A stretch of 64,000 bases of DNA from assembly GCF_016907085.1 (NCBI RefSeq), contig NZ_JAFBBJ010000001.1, positions 1,178,001 through 1,242,000 of the forward strand. The letters run 5' to 3'. Positions 25,438-61,829 of this stretch are shown one piece after another. The notes beneath the pieces were generated by a model. The model was not told where the DNA came from. It was given only the letters and a program-made list of their open reading frames with translations, and made no database searches. This stretch comes from Clavibacter michiganensis. Its GTDB lineage: Bacteria > Actinomycetota > Actinomycetes > Actinomycetales > Microbacteriaceae. The translations under genes and the position numbers were made by a program. Within the stretch, counting starts at the first letter, position 1, and each line of letters starts with the position of its first letter.

Positions 25438-26070
25438 TCAGCGCAGCATGCCGCCCTGGCGCCCCGACTCGGCCCACGCGAGCGCGCGCGTGACGACGCG
25501 CTCGCTCACGTCGAGCACGCGCGCGATCTCCGCGGTGTCGCGGCCCTTCGAGCGCTCCTCGACCGCGATCTGCAGCTTCCGACGGGTGATGCCCTTCGGC
25601 AGCGACGGGAGGGCGGGCGCGGCGGGCGTCGCGGCGCCGACCTCGGGGGCGGCATCCGACGCGGCCCGCGCGGCCCGATCGGCGGACCGCCGGCGGTGCC
25701 GCTCGGCCTCCGTCGTGGCCTCCACCGTGGCGAGCGCGAGCGTGGCCGCGAACAGCCCGCGGCCGGCCGCGGTGCCGGCCTCCAGCCCGTCGCGGATGGC
25801 CCGGAAGGCGATGCCGCGGGCCTCGAGCCCGTTGAGGATCCGCACGACGTCGGCGGCGCCCGGCCCCAGCCGGTCGAGGCTCACGACGAGCAGCTCGTCG
25901 TTCTCGCGGAGGTAGTCGAGCGCGTCCTGCAGGCCGGGGCGCGGGGCCCGGCGCCCGCCGGCGACGTCGACGAAGATGCGCTCGCAGCCGGCCTGGTCGA
26001 GGGCGTCGACCTGGTCCTGGTACGGCTCCTCGGAGCGCGCGACGCGGACGTAGCCCACCAGCGTGGTCAT
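25438..26070 (-). CDS. Resolvase-like protein lacking the catalytic serine
   Basis: A 210-residue protein with a serine-recombinase (resolvase) N-terminal fold: LVGYVRVARSEEPYQDQVDAL, then ELLVVSLDRLGPGAADVVRIL, and a helix-rich dimerisation part. Compared with gamma-delta resolvase, the catalytic Ser10 position is Ala11 (the codon is GCG) and Arg71 is Pro, while the equivalents of Arg8, Asp67 and Arg68 remain. It ends with a helix-turn-helix (RDTAEIARVLDVSERVVTRALAW). It should bind DNA but is unlikely to cut it. No res-like site or transposon ends were found around it. It may act as a DNA-binding regulator or architectural protein; function unknown. Confidence 0.8.
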   Translation of the reverse strand: MTTLVGYVRVARSEEPYQDQVDALDQAGCERIFVDVAGGRRAPRPGLQDALDYLRENDELLVVSLDRLGPGAADVVRILNGLEARGIAFRAIRDGLEAGTAAGRGLFAATLALATVEATTEAERHRRRSADRAARAASDAAPEVGAATPAAPALPSLPKGITRRKLQIAVEERSKGRDTAEIARVLDVSERVVTRALAWAESGRQGGMLR

Positions 26071-54682: not shown

Positions 54683-54720
54683 AGAGGTGATGAGAGCGGC
54701 ATTCGCCGTCGGCGAACGGC

Positions 54721-54747
54721 TTGGCACTCCCCTGCGCCGAGTGCTAA
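54721..54747 (+). promoter_or_regulatory. CIRCE element (HrcA operator) before hsp20
   Basis: TTGGCACTC-N9-GAGTGCTAA differs from the consensus CIRCE element (TTAGCACTC-N9-GAGTGCTAA) at one position. The element also contains or abuts the likely promoter: TTGGCA as -35 and TAATCT (54745-54750) as -10, 18 bp apart. Bound HrcA repressor would block this promoter until heat shock. Confidence 0.9.
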
Positions 54748-54756
54748 TCTCATCGT

Positions 54757-54779
54757 GGTTGAGCCGAGGGGGCTCAACC
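54757..54779 (+). promoter_or_regulatory. HAIR-like element (HspR operator) before hsp20
   Basis: A perfect 9-bp inverted repeat GGTTGAGCC / GGCTCAACC containing TTGAG-C-N7-G-CTCAA. The half-sites and 7-base spacing match the HspR operator HAIR (CTTGAGT-N7-ACTCAAG) except for the T/A pair flanking the spacer. It sits 10 bp downstream of the CIRCE element, near the transcript start. Confidence 0.75.
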
Positions 54780-54817
54780 CCGGAGATCATCACCGCAGAT
54801 CATCAGAGGAGTCGAGC

Positions 54818-55276
54818 ATGAACATGACCTTCGATCCGTTCCGCGAGCTGGACCGCGCCATGGGCGCGCTGGCCGAGACCCGCCAGGCGAACCGTCCGAT
54901 GCCCATCGACCTGCACCGCGAGGGCGACACCTACGTGCTGGCCGCCGACCTCCCGGGCATCGACCCGGGCTCGGTCGACATCGACGTGGACGGCCAGCTG
55001 CTGACCATCCGCGCCGAGCGCACGCTCGCCGGCGATCAGAACGTGCGGTGGCTCACGCGCGAGCGCGTCGCCGGCACGTTCCTCCGGCAGCTGACGCTCG
55101 GCCAGGGCATCGACACCGAGCGCATCTCGGCGCACTACGCCAACGGCGTGCTGAGCGTCACCATCCCGGTGAGCGAGCGGGCGAAGCCGCGGAAGATCGC
55201 GGTCACGTCCGACGAGCAGCAGGGCCAGGAGGGCCGGACGCTGACGGTGGAGCAGGGCGCGCACGCCGCGAGCTGA
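54818..55276 (+). CDS. hsp20: Hsp20/alpha-crystallin small heat-shock protein
   Basis: A 152-residue small heat-shock chaperone that holds unfolding proteins in large oligomers. The alpha-crystallin domain runs from PIDLHREGDTYVLAADLPGIDPGSVDIDV to the conserved GVLSVTIPVSERAKPRKIAV, with the C-terminal IAV (IxI-type) anchor. The start FDPFRELDRAM is typical of actinobacterial Hsp18-like proteins. ATG at 54818 has AGAGGAG six bases upstream. Upstream CIRCE and HAIR-like operators suggest control by both HrcA and HspR. Confidence 0.95.
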   Translation: MNMTFDPFRELDRAMGALAETRQANRPMPIDLHREGDTYVLAADLPGIDPGSVDIDVDGQLLTIRAERTLAGDQNVRWLTRERVAGTFLRQLTLGQGIDTERISAHYANGVLSVTIPVSERAKPRKIAVTSDEQQGQEGRTLTVEQGAHAAS

Positions 55277-55283
55277 TCCGGCC

Positions 55284-55300
55284 GGGCACCAGAGGTGCCC
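55284..55300 (+). terminator. Small hairpin after hsp20
   Basis: A perfect 7-bp stem GGGCACC / GGTGCCC with loop AGA just after the hsp20 stop codon; probably the first of two terminator stems. Confidence 0.55.
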
Positions 55301-55307
55301 CACGCAC

Positions 55308-55352
55308 GAGGAGCCGTCGTCCGCGAGAGCGGGCGGCGGCTCCTCGCATGCC
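55308..55352. repeat. 45-bp direct repeat, copy 1 (terminator hairpin)
   Basis: An exact 45-bp sequence whose first 38 bases form a strong hairpin (GAGGAGCCG...CGGCTCCTC with GAGA loop), the natural terminator between hsp20 and the siderophore operon. The same 45 bp occurs again, unchanged, at 56089-56133, 781 bp away and in the same orientation, bounding a lower-GC segment. Confidence 0.95.
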
Positions 55353-55577
55353 GCCCTCCGAATCGCCCAACCCGCCGTCCATGAGAAAAGGTTCCTGTCG
55401 CGGCGACTCCGATCGATGACGCCCCAACTGGGGCTGGAATGCTCCGGAGCCAGGAGGAGGATCGTGCCCATGGCCGTGAGTGGAGAATCGAGTTGACGCG
55501 TCCGAGCGGAAGAACCGCACCGCCGTACGACACGCGCATAAGCGATACGGCGCCTCAGAAGGCGAGAGGAAGATGCA
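55353..55577 (+). other. Leader of the lower-GC cassette
   Basis: About 225 bases between repeat copy 1 and the membrane-protein gene. It is visibly less GC-rich than the surroundings. It contains CCCCAACTGGGG and GCTCCGGAGC palindromes, a TTGACG hexamer near 55490 without a well-placed -10, and AGAGGAAG ahead of the ATG. No protein-coding frame was found in it. Confidence 0.5.
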
Positions 55578-56090
55578 ATGGCGGATGATCGTCGCACTAA
55601 CCACGAAGAGCAGAAAGAGGAAAGGGCATTGCGCGGCGGATTGTTACTGCTGTCGGTGACGATCATCACCTCCCTGGGCTTGGGCCTCGCCCTAGTCGAC
55701 CTAGGAGGCCGATTGATCCTTGACGCCTCCCGGAGCGGAAGCGTTGACGATCTCGGCACGGCCAGTGACCATCATTCAACTTTGACAACCATCCAGGAAC
55801 AGCTCCTGGCGATTATCCTCTTCGGCGGCGTGGTCCTAGCTTTGATAGGGGCGATCCTCCGAGCATTCGCGCATAACGTCGCGAAGCGAAAAGACTCCGA
55901 CTATGTGGGAAAGCTCTTCGGGCTTGCATCGCTGATGTTCACACTCACGGGCGCGATGGCGGCCATAGATCCTGGTCTGCAGAAGACGGTAGTCGCGACC
56001 TTTGTGCTCCTCATCGCCGGCACCACGTGTGCCGTTGTAGTCGTATCAGCTCTTGTAGTCGGCGAACGGGAGTACCGGAAGTCGATGTGA
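55578..56090 (+). CDS. Lower-GC four-helix membrane protein (probable acquired gene)
   Basis: A 170-residue protein of unknown function. The first 17 residues are charged (MADDRRTNHEEQKEERALRG), then four hydrophobic segments at about 18-43, 75-97, 112-130 and 136-162, with a short basic C-terminus. Codon use is unlike every neighbour: TTA, several CTA, GTA, ATA, GTT and TTT codons that are almost absent elsewhere in the window. Its stop codon TGA is formed by its last base plus the first two bases of repeat copy 2, so the frame ends exactly at the junction. AGAGGAAG lies before the ATG. Signs point to horizontal acquisition; function cannot be inferred. Confidence 0.75.
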   Translation: MADDRRTNHEEQKEERALRGGLLLLSVTIITSLGLGLALVDLGGRLILDASRSGSVDDLGTASDHHSTLTTIQEQLLAIILFGGVVLALIGAILRAFAHNVAKRKDSDYVGKLFGLASLMFTLTGAMAAIDPGLQKTVVATFVLLIAGTTCAVVVVSALVVGEREYRKSM

Positions 56091-56133
56091 GGAGCCGTCG
56101 TCCGCGAGAGCGGGCGGCGGCTCCTCGCATGCC
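56089..56133. repeat. 45-bp direct repeat, copy 2 (terminator hairpin)
   Basis: Identical over 45 bases to 55308-55352. It supplies the last two bases of the preceding gene's stop codon and a terminator hairpin, and lies 12 bp from the convergent stop of the siderophore synthetase gene. Confidence 0.95.
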
Positions 56134-56145
56134 CGGACGGGCGCC

Positions 56146-58647
56146 TCAGCCGATGCGCGGCCGCAGTCCCCGATGGATCGCGAGCGGGTTCCGCAGCGAG
56201 CCGTGGATCTGCATCACCGGCGCCTGCAGGTCGACCATGCGCCGGTTGTCGCGCAGCTGCAGCCGGTTGAGGCACGAGCGGTCGAACGACGGCGCGAAGA
56301 GGTCGAACCGGGCGATGCGCTCGGCGAGCTCCGGGTGCGCGCGCTCGTGGTCGGCGAGCGCCTCGGCCGCCACGCGCCACAGGCCGTCGGGGCCGAGGTC
56401 GTCGCGGTCCTCGAGGAGCGCGGCGGCGAAGCGCAGGAAGCCGTCCATCACGTCGGTGAAGACCGTGAGGGTGCGCTCGTCCTCGGGGATCTCCATCCGG
56501 ATCCGCCGCACGTCCTCCGGCAGCTCGCGCTCCGTGTCGAAGAGGGCGACCTCCTCGGCGATGTCCTTCATCAGCACGCGGACGACGACGTGGTCGCGCA
56601 GCACGAGGATCACGTTCTCGCCGTGCGGCATGAACGCGAGGTCGTGCGCGATCAGCGCGTGCGCGAGCGGCACGAGGTAGGCGTCGAGCCAGCGCCGCAG
56701 CCACGCGGCCGCGCCGATCCCGGACGCGTCGATGAGCGCGCCGATGACCGTGTCGCCGTGCGCGTCGACGTGCAGCAGGCTCGTCATGCTCATCAGCCGC
56801 TCGCCCTCCGCGAGCCCCGGCACGGGCGACTCGCGCCAGAGCGCGGACAGCATCTTCCCGTGGGAGTGGCCGGGCGGCAGCGCGGACTCGACCCGCTCGT
56901 CGCGCACGCCCACGGCGGCGACCTCGCGGAGGATCCCGAACCCGAGCCGCGCGAACTCCGGGTCGCCCGCGACGAGCGCGTGCACCCAGTCGTTGATCGC
57001 CGGCGTGACCGCCATGTAGGCCGGCGAGAGGCCGCGCGTGAAGCCCATGTTGAGGATCGACAGCGAGGTCTTCACGTAGCAGCGCTCGGGGGTCGTGCGG
57101 TTGGCCCACGTGCGGATCGACTGCTGCGCGCCGTACTCGTCGTCGCCCGTGCCGAGCAGCACGATGTCGCGCCGGGCGATGAGGCCCGCGAAGGTCACGG
57201 TGACCACGTTCTCCCACTGCCACGGGTGCACCGGCACGAGCACGCGCTCGGCGGGGTCGATGCCGAGCTGCTCCATGCGGGCGCGGAACCGTGCGCGGAC
57301 GGGGACGCCGAGCTCGGCGTCGAGGAACGCCTCGCGGTCGAGCCCGTCGATCGCGGTGAAGCGGGCGAGGCGCGCGTGCACGGCGAGCCAGAGGATCCGC
57401 ACGTCCTGGCCGGCCTCGGGCGCGTACCGGTCGTGGTCGTCGAGGTCGAAGCCGATGCGGCCGTTGGTCGCGACGAAGCAGGGGTGCCCCTCGTCCATCG
57501 TCGACTCGACCTCGGCGTAGGACGCCGTGAGGAGGCCGCGCGCGTCCGGCACGGCGCGGAGGCGCGAGAAGGCGGCGGCCGAGAGCGTGCTCTGGATCTC
57601 GTCGAGGTAGACGGGCAGGACCTCGTCGGTGATCCCGAGCCGGTCGCGGAGGTCGAGCACGAGGTCGGTCGCGTCGAGCTCGGCGGGCCGGCCGTCGACC
57701 GTGCGGCGGATGCTCGCCTCGTCGACGTCCCAGTGGTCGAGCTCGAGGATCCTGGCGCGGTACGAGTACACGCTCCGGCCGTCGGCGCTCGCGACGCGGT
57801 AGTCGGCCCAGCGCCTCGGGTCGTGCGGGCGGCGCGGCGCACCGGGAGCGCGCTCCGGATCCACGCGCTCGGGCGCGATGAGCAGCTCGTGCGCGAACTC
57901 GGCGAGCGCCTTGCGGACGAGGTGGCGGGTGGCGGCGGCCCACACGTCGGGGCGGAGGTGCGCGGCGCGGTGGACGCGCGGATCCGGCTCGGCGGTCCTC
58001 GACGCGGCGGCGGGCCGGGTCTCGGGGTGAGTGTCGCGCCTGCGGTCGGGGGTGAGGGTCATGGCGGTTCCGTCCGTGGGGGTGGCGTGCAGGAGGGCGT
58101 CGTCGCGCGTGGCGACGCTGAGGAGCGCGTGCTTCGTGCCGAGGTCGACGACGCGGAGCGGCCGGAAGCCGACGAGCTCGTTGAGGCGCTGGATCCGGGT
58201 GTTGCGCACGTCGGGCTCGACGACGAGGCGCCGCACGGCCGGATCCCGGAGGAGGTGCGCGACGACGTGCCGCATGACCGCGGTCGTGAAGCCGGGCAGC
58301 GGGTCGCCAGCCGGCGGGGCGACGAGCAGGTGCATGCCGCGGTCGCCGGGGAGCGGATCCAGGTGCGCGCCGATGGGGTCGTCGGCCGGGTCGTACGCCT
58401 CCACGAGGAAGGCGGGTGCGCCGTCGTGGAGGCCGATCCAGGCCTCGCGCCGCGGATCCGCCGCGATGGACCGGTACTCGGCCCGCACCTCGTCGAGGGT
58501 CGCGTGCTCCATCTGCCAGAAGCGGGCGCGCGGGGCGGTGACCCAGGCGTGCACGAGCGCAGCGTCGGCATCCGGGTCGAGCGGGCGGAGGTCGAGGGCG
58601 GAGGCGAGGGACTCGGCGGCGGACGCCTCGGTGACGGGCGCGCTCAC
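56146..58647 (-). CDS. desD: Fused GNAT acyltransferase - IucA/IucC siderophore synthetase (DesC-DesD)
   Basis: An 833-residue protein in one uninterrupted frame. Residues 1-195 are an IucB/DesC-like GNAT acyltransferase (ARFWQMEHATLDEVRAEY; RRLVVEPDVRNTRIQRLNELVGF), which acylates an N-hydroxy diamine. Residues about 196-833 are an IucA/IucC NIS synthetase (STMDEGHPCFVATNGRIGF, VHPWQWENV, TSLSILNMGFTRGLSP, KTSL and HGENVILVLRD are family landmarks), which condenses the units using ATP. In Streptomyces these are separate desC and desD genes. The start GTG at 58647 overlaps the desB stop (GTGA). A separate start at ATG 58062 for the synthetase alone is possible but has only a weak ribosome site. 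Last gene of the iron-regulated operon. Confidence 0.88.
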   Translation of the reverse strand: MSAPVTEASAAESLASALDLRPLDPDADAALVHAWVTAPRARFWQMEHATLDEVRAEYRSIAADPRREAWIGLHDGAPAFLVEAYDPADDPIGAHLDPLPGDRGMHLLVAPPAGDPLPGFTTAVMRHVVAHLLRDPAVRRLVVEPDVRNTRIQRLNELVGFRPLRVVDLGTKHALLSVATRDDALLHATPTDGTAMTLTPDRRRDTHPETRPAAASRTAEPDPRVHRAAHLRPDVWAAATRHLVRKALAEFAHELLIAPERVDPERAPGAPRRPHDPRRWADYRVASADGRSVYSYRARILELDHWDVDEASIRRTVDGRPAELDATDLVLDLRDRLGITDEVLPVYLDEIQSTLSAAAFSRLRAVPDARGLLTASYAEVESTMDEGHPCFVATNGRIGFDLDDHDRYAPEAGQDVRILWLAVHARLARFTAIDGLDREAFLDAELGVPVRARFRARMEQLGIDPAERVLVPVHPWQWENVVTVTFAGLIARRDIVLLGTGDDEYGAQQSIRTWANRTTPERCYVKTSLSILNMGFTRGLSPAYMAVTPAINDWVHALVAGDPEFARLGFGILREVAAVGVRDERVESALPPGHSHGKMLSALWRESPVPGLAEGERLMSMTSLLHVDAHGDTVIGALIDASGIGAAAWLRRWLDAYLVPLAHALIAHDLAFMPHGENVILVLRDHVVVRVLMKDIAEEVALFDTERELPEDVRRIRMEIPEDERTLTVFTDVMDGFLRFAAALLEDRDDLGPDGLWRVAAEALADHERAHPELAERIARFDLFAPSFDRSCLNRLQLRDNRRMVDLQAPVMQIHGSLRNPLAIHRGLRPRIG

Positions 58648-60011
58648 GCGAGCACCCCGGATCCGGCCGCGGGTCCGTCGTCGGGCAGGCCGAACTCCTG
58701 GAACGCGATCCGCTCCTCCACCGCGTAGTCCTCGCGCCCGGTGATGGCGCGCAGGATCCGCGAGTTGCGGTGCGCGGTCATGCCGAGGTCGGGTGCGACG
58801 AAGCCGTGCGTGTGCACCTCGGCGTTCTGCACGAAGAGCGTGCCGGCGGCGTCGACGGTGTGCTCGCGCGCCACGTCGAGGCGGCCGCGTGCGTCGCGGT
58901 GCACGCGGTCGCCGAGCCCGTCGAGGATGCGCGGCGCCTGTGCGTCGTAGCCGCTCGCCATGACGACCGCGCTCGTCGGCCAGTCGCGCTCGGCTCCCGT
59001 CTCCGCGTGCCGCAGCCCGAGGACCGCGCCGCCGTCGGGCGTCGGCCGCGCCGACACCACCTCCGCGTTGGTCAGCAGCCGGGTCGGCACGCCGGATCCC
59101 GCGTCGCCGCCGGCCGCGAGCCGCCCCTCGGCCCGCAGCGCGTCGAACGCGAGCCGCTTCCGGTAGAGCGTGTGGAAGATGTCGTCGATGAGCTCGGAGT
59201 CGATCCCCTTGTAGAGGTTCCGCTGCTCGCGCAGCAGCACCGCGCGCGCATCCGCGGGCAGGCCGAAGAAGTGGTCGCTGTACTCGGGGCTCGTCATCTC
59301 CAGCGTGAGCCGCGTGTACTCGAGCGGGAAGAACCGCGGCGAGCGCGTGATCCAGTCGAGCCGGTAGCCGCGGGAGTCCACGTCCTCGAGCAGGTCGCGG
59401 TAGATCTCCGCCGCGCTCTGCCCGCTGCCCACCACCGTGATCGCGTCCCGCTCCTGAAGCGCGTCCTTGGCGCCGAGGTAGCCGGAGCTGTGGACCACGC
59501 CCGGCAGGTCGCGGACGGCCTCGGGCAGCCACGGCGGCGTGCCGACGCCGACCACGAGGTTCCGGCCGCGGTGCACGTGCGCGGCGCCCGCGGCGTCGAC
59601 CGACTCGACGACGTAGGCGCCCTCGGTCTCGTCGAACGAGACCGCCCGCACGTCGCGGTCGAGCTCGATCCCCCGCGCACGCTCCGCCGCCCATCGGCAG
59701 TACGCGACGTACTCGCTGCGCAGCACGAAGAAGTCCTCGCGGATGTAGAAGGAGTACAGCCGCCCGGTGTCCTTGAGGTACGCGAGGAACGAGAAGCGCG
59801 AGGTCGGATCCGCGAGCGTCACGAGGTCGGCGAGGAACGGCGTCTGCAGGTGCGCGGTCGGCAGCATCATGCCGGGGTGCCAGTCGAAGCGCGGCTTCCG
59901 CTCGAGCACGACGAGGTCGAGGTCGAGGGGGTCGGCGAGGCAGGCGAGGCCGAGGTTCGCGGGACCGAGGCCGATCGCGACGGCGTCGTGGATGCGGCCC
60001 GAGGCGCTCAT
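58644..60011 (-). CDS. desB: Lysine/cadaverine N6-monooxygenase (DesB-like)
   Basis: A 455-residue flavin N-hydroxylase that hydroxylates the side-chain amine of lysine, ornithine or cadaverine with NADPH and oxygen. FAD-binding loop is AIGLGPANLGLACLAD, then WHPGMMLPTAHLQTPFLADLV; the NADPH site is VVGSGQSAAEIYRDL, and the C-terminal NAEVHTHGFVAPDLG is typical. Its ATG overlaps the decarboxylase stop codon (ATGA), and its own stop overlaps the next GTG; the operon is fully coupled. Cadaverine is the expected substrate from the preceding decarboxylase. Confidence 0.94.
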   Translation of the reverse strand: MSASGRIHDAVAIGLGPANLGLACLADPLDLDLVVLERKPRFDWHPGMMLPTAHLQTPFLADLVTLADPTSRFSFLAYLKDTGRLYSFYIREDFFVLRSEYVAYCRWAAERARGIELDRDVRAVSFDETEGAYVVESVDAAGAAHVHRGRNLVVGVGTPPWLPEAVRDLPGVVHSSGYLGAKDALQERDAITVVGSGQSAAEIYRDLLEDVDSRGYRLDWITRSPRFFPLEYTRLTLEMTSPEYSDHFFGLPADARAVLLREQRNLYKGIDSELIDDIFHTLYRKRLAFDALRAEGRLAAGGDAGSGVPTRLLTNAEVVSARPTPDGGAVLGLRHAETGAERDWPTSAVVMASGYDAQAPRILDGLGDRVHRDARGRLDVAREHTVDAAGTLFVQNAEVHTHGFVAPDLGMTAHRNSRILRAITGREDYAVEERIAFQEFGLPDDGPAAGSGVLA

Positions 60012-61618
60012 CGGCCGGCCTCCGCGACGGCGTCGGCGGCCGCGGTGGGCTCGCCGGCCGCCGCGTCGTCCAGCCCGGCGTCGAGCGCATCGCCCGCCGC
60101 CACCACCATCCCCAGGATCTCCGCGATGTGCGCGTCTGTCGTCGCCGGGTTGAGCAGCGTGAGCTTGAGGTGCGCGCGCCCGCCCACGCGGGTCGCGGCG
60201 ACCATCGCGCGGCCGGAGTCCTGGATCGCCTGCCGGATGCCGCGGTTCACGGCGTCGGAGCGCGCCCCGGCATCGGGCGCCGCGGATCCGTCCCGCTCCC
60301 CCGCCGGCACGTACCGGAACACGAGCGCGCTGATCTCGGGCCGCACCACCACCTCGAGCGCCGGATCCCGCCTCAGCGCGGACCACGTGCGGTCGGCGAG
60401 CGCGATCACGTCGTCGAGCATCCGCCCCACCCCGTCGGCGCCCACCGTCCGCAGCGTCAGCCACAGCTTCAGCGCGTCGAAGCGCCGCGTGGTCTGCAGC
60501 GACTTGTCGACCTGGTTCGGGATCTCCTCGTGCGCGCGATCCGCCGGGTTGAGGTAGTCGGCGTGCAGCGTCGCGTGCCGGAGCGTGCGGCCGTCGCGCA
60601 CGATCAGCGCGCTGGAGCTCACGGGCTGGAAGAAGGTCTTGTGGTAGTCGACCGTCACGGAGTCGGCGCGCTCGATCCCGTCGAGCAGGTGCCGGTGCCG
60701 GAGCGAGGTCAGCAGGCCGCCGCCGTAGGCCGCGTCGACGTGCAGCCAGATCCCCTCGCGGCGGCAGACGTTGCCGATCGCGGGCAGCGGGTCGACGCTG
60801 CCGAAGTCGGTGGTGCCGGCGGTCGCCACGACCGCGATCGGCAGGAGCCCGGCCGCGTAGCAGCGCGCGAGCTCGCGTTCCAGGGCATCGACGCGCATCC
60901 GCTTGGCGTCGTCGCTCGGCACGCGGATGACCGCGTCGGAGGCGAGGCCGAGGATCCGCGCGCTCTTCTCGACGCTGAAGTGGCCGACGTCGCTGACGAG
61001 GATCCGCATCCGCTGCCGGTCGGCCATCGACAGCCCGTGCACGGCCGCCGCCTCGTCGCGCGCGAGCAGCAGCGCCTGCAGGTTCGACTGGCTGCCACCG
61101 CTCGTGAAGACGCCGTCCGCGTCGTCGCCGAGGCCGGCGCGGGCCGCGGTCCAGTCGATGAGCGCGCGCTCGATGAGGGTCGCGCCCGCGCTCTGGTCCC
61201 AGGTGTCCATCGACGTGTTGACGCTGGAGAGGATGAGCTCCCCCGCGATCGCCGGGATGAGGATCGGGCAGTTGAGGTGCGCGACGTACGACGGGTCGTG
61301 GAACCAGACGGCGTCGCGGAGGTACAGGTCGTCGAGCTCATCGAGCGCGTCGTCGAGGCCGCCGAGCGGGCGGTCGAGGTCGAGCCCGGCGAAGGATCCG
61401 CGGAGCCGGTCGGGCGTGATGCCGGTGAACGGGCCGTCGGCGCGGCGGGCGGCGGCGCGCACGTGGGCGGCGGCGGCGCGGAGGGCGGCGTCCCAGCCGG
61501 GGAGGGAGCGGTCGGAGAAGAGCTCGGCGGCGGGATCCGCGACGGTCGCGGTGTCGGCGGGGAGCCGGTCGGCGAGGGCCGGATCGGAGGGGCGGGAGGC
61601 GTGCGGGGAGAGGGTCAT
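60008..61618 (-). CDS. desA: PLP-dependent lysine decarboxylase (DesA-like)
   Basis: A 536-residue group-II pyridoxal-phosphate decarboxylase. The PLP lysine is about Lys327 in VDYHKTFFQPVS; the phosphate-binding VFTSGGSQSNLQALL and the cofactor Asp in LHVDAAYGGG are clear. In Streptomyces DesA makes cadaverine from lysine as the first step of desferrioxamine synthesis; a diaminobutyrate decarboxylase role is the alternative, but the gene order desA-desB-desC-desD favours lysine. ATG at 61618. An iron box lies 57 bp upstream. Confidence 0.92.
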   Translation of the reverse strand: MTLSPHASRPSDPALADRLPADTATVADPAAELFSDRSLPGWDAALRAAAAHVRAAARRADGPFTGITPDRLRGSFAGLDLDRPLGGLDDALDELDDLYLRDAVWFHDPSYVAHLNCPILIPAIAGELILSSVNTSMDTWDQSAGATLIERALIDWTAARAGLGDDADGVFTSGGSQSNLQALLLARDEAAAVHGLSMADRQRMRILVSDVGHFSVEKSARILGLASDAVIRVPSDDAKRMRVDALERELARCYAAGLLPIAVVATAGTTDFGSVDPLPAIGNVCRREGIWLHVDAAYGGGLLTSLRHRHLLDGIERADSVTVDYHKTFFQPVSSSALIVRDGRTLRHATLHADYLNPADRAHEEIPNQVDKSLQTTRRFDALKLWLTLRTVGADGVGRMLDDVIALADRTWSALRRDPALEVVVRPEISALVFRYVPAGERDGSAAPDAGARSDAVNRGIRQAIQDSGRAMVAATRVGGRAHLKLTLLNPATTDAHIAEILGMVVAAGDALDAGLDDAAAGEPTAAADAVAEAGR

Positions 61619-61674
61619 GGGTCCTTCGTCGGTTCGGTGGGGAGCCGTGTCCGGGTCACGAGCACCCAGCCCAG

Positions 61675-61693
61675 TTAGGCAAGGCTCACCTAA
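61675..61693 (-). promoter_or_regulatory. Iron box (DtxR/IdeR/DmdR operator) for the des operon
   Basis: TTAGGCAAGGCTCACCTAA differs at only two positions from the actinobacterial iron-box consensus TTAGGTTAGGCTCACCTAA. It overlaps the promoter area of desA, so Fe2+-loaded DtxR-type repressor should silence the operon when iron is plentiful. Confidence 0.93.
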
Positions 61694-61829
61694 TATGGAG
61701 GCGCTCGGACGGGAACGCAACCCGGCCGACGACGACTCGCGGGGACCCTCCGCGAGGCGATGCCGCGACCCCGATTCGGGGGCGTCTGCATCGATGTCAG
61801 GACGGATCGCCCCTCGTAGGGTGAGGAGC

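What the first reader, a model, noticed from the sequence alone, without database searches (positions are those of the whole stretch)
55308..56133. Lower-GC membrane-protein cassette bounded by two identical copies of a terminator
The 45-bp hairpin between hsp20 and the siderophore operon occurs twice, exactly, 781 bp apart and in the same orientation. Between the copies lies a segment with foreign codon use encoding one four-helix membrane protein, and the second copy supplies the last two bases of its stop codon. There is no integrase, transposase or inverted end. This looks like integration into, or recombination between, terminator copies, giving a minimal cassette that brings its own terminator. 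Terminators as recombination sites for single-gene cargo are not a standard mobile-element type.
Basis: seen in the sequence. Interest (0 to 1): 0.8.

Follow-up and report, generated by a model that had tools for sequence, protein, structure and literature searches.

The report
Gene insertion that copied a terminator
One foreign membrane-protein gene sits in a bacterial chromosome at a spot where related species carry other added genes or none, and the likely transcription stop signal at that spot is present as two exact copies, one on each side of the new gene.

Summary
A 45-bp hairpin (T) occurs exactly twice, at 55308-55352 and 56089-56133; its core is found nowhere else in the genome at up to 3 mismatches. 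The 736 bp between have lower G+C (59.6%) than every sliding window of that size in the window sequence (overall 73.7%) and carry one membrane-protein gene whose TGA overlaps copy 2. Comparison with the 17 held congeners shows an insertion: all 17 have one T after hsp20 and none matches the insert DNA there; 11 are empty sites. Four carry other small genes after T (two kinds), and two lack the whole siderophore block. So the siderophore side of T is a recurrent indel point. Best reading: a one-off acquisition from the mobile gene pool that duplicated T as it joined (template switch, or crossover at T). The extra T was perhaps kept because a plus-strand gene here would otherwise run into the convergent siderophore operon.

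The parts
54818..55276 (+). hsp20 (small heat-shock protein), left neighbour
   Evidence: ORF; Pfam HSP20 E 1.8e-21; found in the fetched locus of all 17 congeners
55308..55352 (+). Copy 1 of the 45-bp hairpin T, terminator-like, 31 bp after the hsp20 stop; its left flank is the native one
   Evidence: one T at the same place in 17 of 17 congeners
55353..55577 (+). Inserted leader upstream of the cargo gene (63.6% G+C); no promoter-like site or RNA family found
   Evidence: no DNA match in the 17 congener loci
55578..56090 (+). Cargo: 170-aa protein, four helices in a low-confidence model, unknown function, 57.9% G+C
   Evidence: best relatives two tandem genes on a plasmid-like contig of G066
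56089..56133 (+). Copy 2 of T; overlaps the cargo stop codon; its right flank is the native one, facing the siderophore operon
56146..61812 (-). Convergent siderophore block (GNAT plus IucA/IucC protein, PLP decarboxylase); absent in G007 and G014, where sequence matching window 61813 onwards follows soon after T
   Evidence: Pfam

Best explanation
A foreign membrane-protein gene with its leader (736 bp) was inserted, in this lineage only as far as one genome per species can tell, at an indel-prone point beside the hsp20 terminator-like hairpin, and the joining event copied the hairpin, giving T-cargo-T. Shown: T duplicated; one T and no such insert in the 17 relatives; foreign composition; other indels at the same point. 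Inferred: the hairpin promotes breakage or fork stalling; repair synthesis left T, copied the foreign segment up to its stop codon and re-entered at the start of T through a short match (at least GA), or a short crossover at T did the same. Inferred too: the second T was kept because a plus-strand gene here needs a stop before the convergent siderophore operon, while hsp20 keeps copy 1. It is not a dedicated mobile cassette system.
For: One T and no match to the insert in 17 of 17 congener loci; 11 are plain empty sites. The nearest by flanks, G010 (96.0%), is empty. Copy 1 keeps the native left flank, copy 2 the native right flank. T varies between species: 20 of 153 species pairs share the loop and 3 of 153 the whole core plus 8 nt, so two identical copies come from one sequence, recently, or were homogenised. 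Three other indels (two small-gene inserts and the siderophore block) abut the same side of T. Both other small-gene inserts (in 4 genomes) lie on the minus strand with one T; the plus-strand insert has two. The cargo ends at the same alignment column as the longer G066 relative, so its stop codon is probably the native one. The hairpin is very stable as single-stranded DNA, -21.3 kcal/mol. No tyrosine recombinase other than XerC/XerD-like was found.
Against: The join falls exactly on the stop codon and the copied block is exactly the hairpin plus 7 nt, tidier than random repair would usually give. The donor is unknown, so microhomology at the junctions cannot be tested. With one genome per species, loss of the cargo by recombination between the T copies in relatives cannot be excluded, and the locus tree has no well-supported branch. 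The strand rationale rests on one plus-strand case against two minus-strand insert kinds.
Confidence: 0.6

Rival explanations
1. Campbell-type integration: a circle (plasmid piece or excision product) that already carried cargo plus a T copy crossed over with the chromosomal T by RecA-dependent recombination.
For: It gives exactly T-cargo-T with native outer flanks. The cargo's relatives sit on a plasmid-like contig with ParA and a topoisomerase.
Against: No plasmid record matches the insert DNA and no plasmid or phage record the cargo protein; no viral contig has the exact hairpin core. The genome-contig scan found 4 stretches, all Clavibacter, but it missed other congeners that carry the core, so it is incomplete. 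A T from another species would usually differ (3 of 153 pairs identical).
Confidence: 0.2
2. One reading: T is an att-like site at which a trans-acting recombinase inserts single-gene cassettes, each bringing its own terminator.
For: Exact direct repeats around a single foreign gene, and varied inserts beside the same T.
Against: 0 of 17 congeners, including the 4 with other small inserts, has a second T. No second such pair among 393 hairpins in 38% of the genome. Tyrosine recombinases found: two, XerC/XerD-like. No dif-like site by one recalled pattern.
Confidence: 0.12
3. Old insertion in the genus ancestor, lost cleanly many times by recombination between the T copies.
For: Direct repeats can delete precisely, leaving one T; the locus tree does not resolve the order of events.
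Against: Needs loss in all 17 congeners; the copies are still identical although T varies between species; cargo composition is far from that of the genome.
Confidence: 0.04
4. Assembly artefact.
For: Only one genome carries it.
Against: Single-contig genome listed as 100% complete with 0.81% contamination; native flanks intact on both sides.
Confidence: 0.02

Closest known systems
Integrase-borne genomic islands at tRNA or gene 3' ends (recalled)
   Same: Direct repeats of a chromosomal 3'-end element flank foreign DNA, and the neighbour keeps its end
   Different: One gene only, no integrase in the insert, target is a terminator-like hairpin, and the other inserts at the site show no repeat of it
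Integron gene cassettes with attC hairpins (recalled)
   Same: Single gene followed directly by a hairpin
   Different: No integron integrase found; the 45-mer has no GTT or AAC
pdif modules moved by XerCD (recalled)
   Same: Small gene sets between short repeats without their own recombinase; XerC/XerD-like proteins are present
   Different: T is a G+C-rich palindrome, and no dif-like site was found by the one pattern tried
Group IIC introns, which insert after terminators (recalled)
   Same: Insertion just downstream of a terminator-like hairpin
   Different: No intron RNA family over threshold and no reverse-transcriptase match in the insert's ORFs tested; the hairpin is duplicated

Membership tests
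Integrase-type genomic island | Direct repeats at both ends equal to one copy in the empty site | tested here: met
Integrase-type genomic island | Integrase gene in the element, or a dedicated one elsewhere | tested here: not met
   No Pfam family over cut-off in the cargo or in three overlapping minus-strand ORFs; PF00589 in the genome hits two XerC/XerD-like proteins; PF00239 hits one gene at window 25438-26070 and one place with a stop inside
Integron cassette | IntI integrase | tested here: not met
   Both tyrosine recombinases score 118.5 and 91.6 bits against the integron model's cut-off of 265
Integron cassette | attC core sites (GTT...AAC, recalled) | tested here: not met
   Neither triplet occurs in the 45-mer
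XerCD pdif module | dif-like 28-bp sites at the ends | tested here: not met
   One recalled pattern, 2 mismatches allowed, 0 matches in the 7-kb locus; actinobacterial dif variants not tested
Transposon / insertion sequence | Transposase and terminal inverted repeats | tested here: not met
   No transposase family in the ORFs tested; of 9 inverted pairs in 55280-56160 the only one at the insert's ends is made by the palindromic T copies
Group IIC intron | Intron RNA downstream of the terminator | tested here: inconclusive
   No Rfam family over threshold in 54700-56300; degenerate remnants not tested
Intrinsic terminator (T) | Strong hairpin followed by a U-run | tested here: inconclusive
   Hairpin met, U-run absent

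The most novel reading that the evidence does not exclude
Strong terminator hairpins between convergent genes act as entry points for single genes in this genus, and the joining process copies the hairpin, so that a plus-strand newcomer is delivered with a ready terminator and no neighbour loses its own.
Probability: 0.12. Interest if true: 0.8.

Novelty: new variant of a known kind. Interest (0 to 1): 0.4.

Why it matters
It gives a clean empty-site/filled-site pair for asking how single foreign genes settle in bacterial chromosomes without an integrase, and it points to terminator hairpins between convergent genes as tolerated, perhaps preferred, points of entry. If more T-X-T loci exist, terminator duplication would be a way by which new genes arrive transcriptionally insulated.

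Tried and rejected
Rejected: shared old duplication (17 of 17 congeners have one T); T as a dispersed repeat (2 places in the genome; 0 exact-core matches in viral contigs). The genome-contig scan gave 4 stretches, all Clavibacter, but several other congeners carry the same core and were not listed, so that scan is incomplete. Cargo from a known phage or plasmid: no match to the insert DNA in plasmids, none to the protein in plasmids or phages, none to its two G066 relatives in plasmids, no relative in viral contigs or genome contigs. Cargo in a named family: Pfam and PHROGs gave only weak matches (below cut-off for Pfam), NCBIfam and PADLOC none for it. A recent jump of the other inserts between species: they are less alike (88.3% and 88.6%) than their flanks (93.2% and 92.5%). 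The locus tree had no starred branch, so gains could not be told from losses. A 3-row profile search of 398 family genomes gave 14 with matches; G000 and G066 were strong. I read the other 12 loci (in one search four of them were read on the wrong strand, which one search put right): six, all from genus g45, are small membrane proteins sharing a motif with the cargo (L061, L062, L065, L067-L069); six look unrelated. The structure model was poor (pLDDT 59), so no fold search was made.

Nothing learned: all seven paper searches failed or timed out, so nothing is said about what is or is not in print, and all literature comparisons are recalled.

Full report
What is there. Two exact 45-bp copies of a palindromic element (T) lie at 55308-55352 and 56089-56133 on the same strand, 781 bp apart. 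T starts 31 bp after the hsp20 stop (hsp20 54818-55276, Pfam HSP20). The second copy ends 12 bp before the end of the convergent siderophore gene (IucA/IucC). The hairpin has a 17-bp stem with two G-U pairs on the plus-strand RNA, -43.3 and -48.1 kcal/mol in its two contexts; the minus-strand RNA folds less strongly. It lacks a U-run and the simple scan does not call it a terminator, so that name rests on position, stability and conservation. Between the copies lie 736 bp of 59.6% G+C, lower than every one of 1266 sliding windows of that size in the 73.7% window sequence. They hold one gene, 55578-56090, whose TGA takes its last two bases from copy 2. The hairpin core occurs at these two places only in the 3.32-Mb genome at up to 3 mismatches.

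Comparison with relatives. The genus search returned the own genome and 17 others. All 17 have hsp20 followed by a single T. In 11 (G001, 2, 3, 5, 6, 8, 10, 11, 13, 15, 17) the siderophore operon follows directly: an empty site. G004 and G009 have a minus-strand gene for a 150-aa protein of secreted look (my reading of the sequence) after T. G012 and G016 have a minus-strand pair; in G012 one is BrnT-like (Pfam 31.7 bits, just below the cut-off of 34.5) and the other has a DUF2188 domain. G007 and G014 have no siderophore block there: sequence matching window 61813 onwards follows soon after T, and no homologue of the IucA/IucC part is found in either (G007 is listed as 92% complete). The insert DNA has no match in any of the 17 loci.

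Which copy is old. Copy 1 keeps the native left flank and copy 2 the native right flank, so the event added 'cargo plus one T' as a unit. T changes between species: the loop is shared by 20 of 153 species pairs and the whole core plus 8 nt by 3 of 153. Identity of both copies therefore means a recent copy from one sequence, or later conversion, rather than a T imported from another species.

Is it one of many? In about 1.26 Mb (window plus 60 stretches of 20 kb, 4 kb overlap) I found 393 hairpins with stems of 11 bp or more. T has by far the best direct copy; six other pairs passed the loose limit with 2 to 7 mismatches over 25 to 32 nt, two of them plainly low-complexity, the others not followed. 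Exact direct repeats of 25 bp or more within 10 kb gave 30 rows: T, 16 spaced under 200 bp, 11 that come in sets at one spacing (probably paralogous genes, not tested), one 1323-bp repeat and one lone 29-bp pair. The remaining 62% of the genome was not scanned in this way.

What could have moved it. No recombinase was recognised in the insert. The tyrosine recombinases found in the genome are two XerC/XerD-like proteins, named by best score; each falls below its XerC or XerD equivalog cut-off. Serine recombinases found are one gene at window 25438-26070, 29 kb away and of normal composition, and one place with a stop inside. No dif-like site was found with one recalled pattern. Transposases elsewhere in the genome were not searched.

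The cargo. It has four hydrophobic helices (sequence, and a low-confidence model) and no family above cut-off. The only relatives among 299 family genomes in a single-sequence search are two tandem genes in G066 (28% and 24% identity over the alignment), on a 174-kb contig with ParA, a topoisomerase, a DNA polymerase III alpha and a lysozyme-domain protein, which looks like a plasmid (inference). A profile search adds six weak, motif-sharing proteins from one other genus. No hit besides the own genome came from 396 order and 394 class genomes (draws overlap). The cargo ends at the same alignment column as the longer G066 relative, so its stop codon is probably original and the join to T lies right on it.

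Mechanism. I favour a single repair or replication event at a stable hairpin that copied the foreign segment and re-entered at the start of T, or a short crossover at T. The strand pattern suggests why the extra T stayed: the two minus-strand insert kinds (4 genomes) have one T, and the single plus-strand insert has two. This is inference from one case.

Noticed in passing
window 56085-56130: The last cargo bases (ATGT) pair with the native right flank GCAT, so the stem of copy 2 is longer (21 pairs) than that of copy 1. I have no explanation; it may be chance.
   Followed up: no
G012 and G016, hsp20-siderophore interval (L046, L050): A two-gene pair (BrnT-like plus DUF2188 in G012) with an inverted repeat of about 20 bp at its upstream end, seen by eye, perhaps its operator.
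   Followed up: partly
window 56134-61812: The siderophore block is absent as a unit in G007 and G014 with its left edge at or just after T; gain or loss not decided.
   Followed up: partly
G066:C6:14547-15683 (L059): Two tandem cargo relatives on a plasmid-like contig with ParA, topoisomerase and DNA polymerase III alpha.
   Followed up: partly
window 25438-26070, minus strand: Serine-recombinase-like gene of normal composition; the stretch where the catalytic serine usually lies (recalled motif) reads VARSEE, so activity is uncertain.
   Followed up: no
L120 10912 (G000:C1 about 3018912): A 1323-bp exact direct repeat 7.8 kb apart, which looks like a recent large duplication.
   Followed up: no
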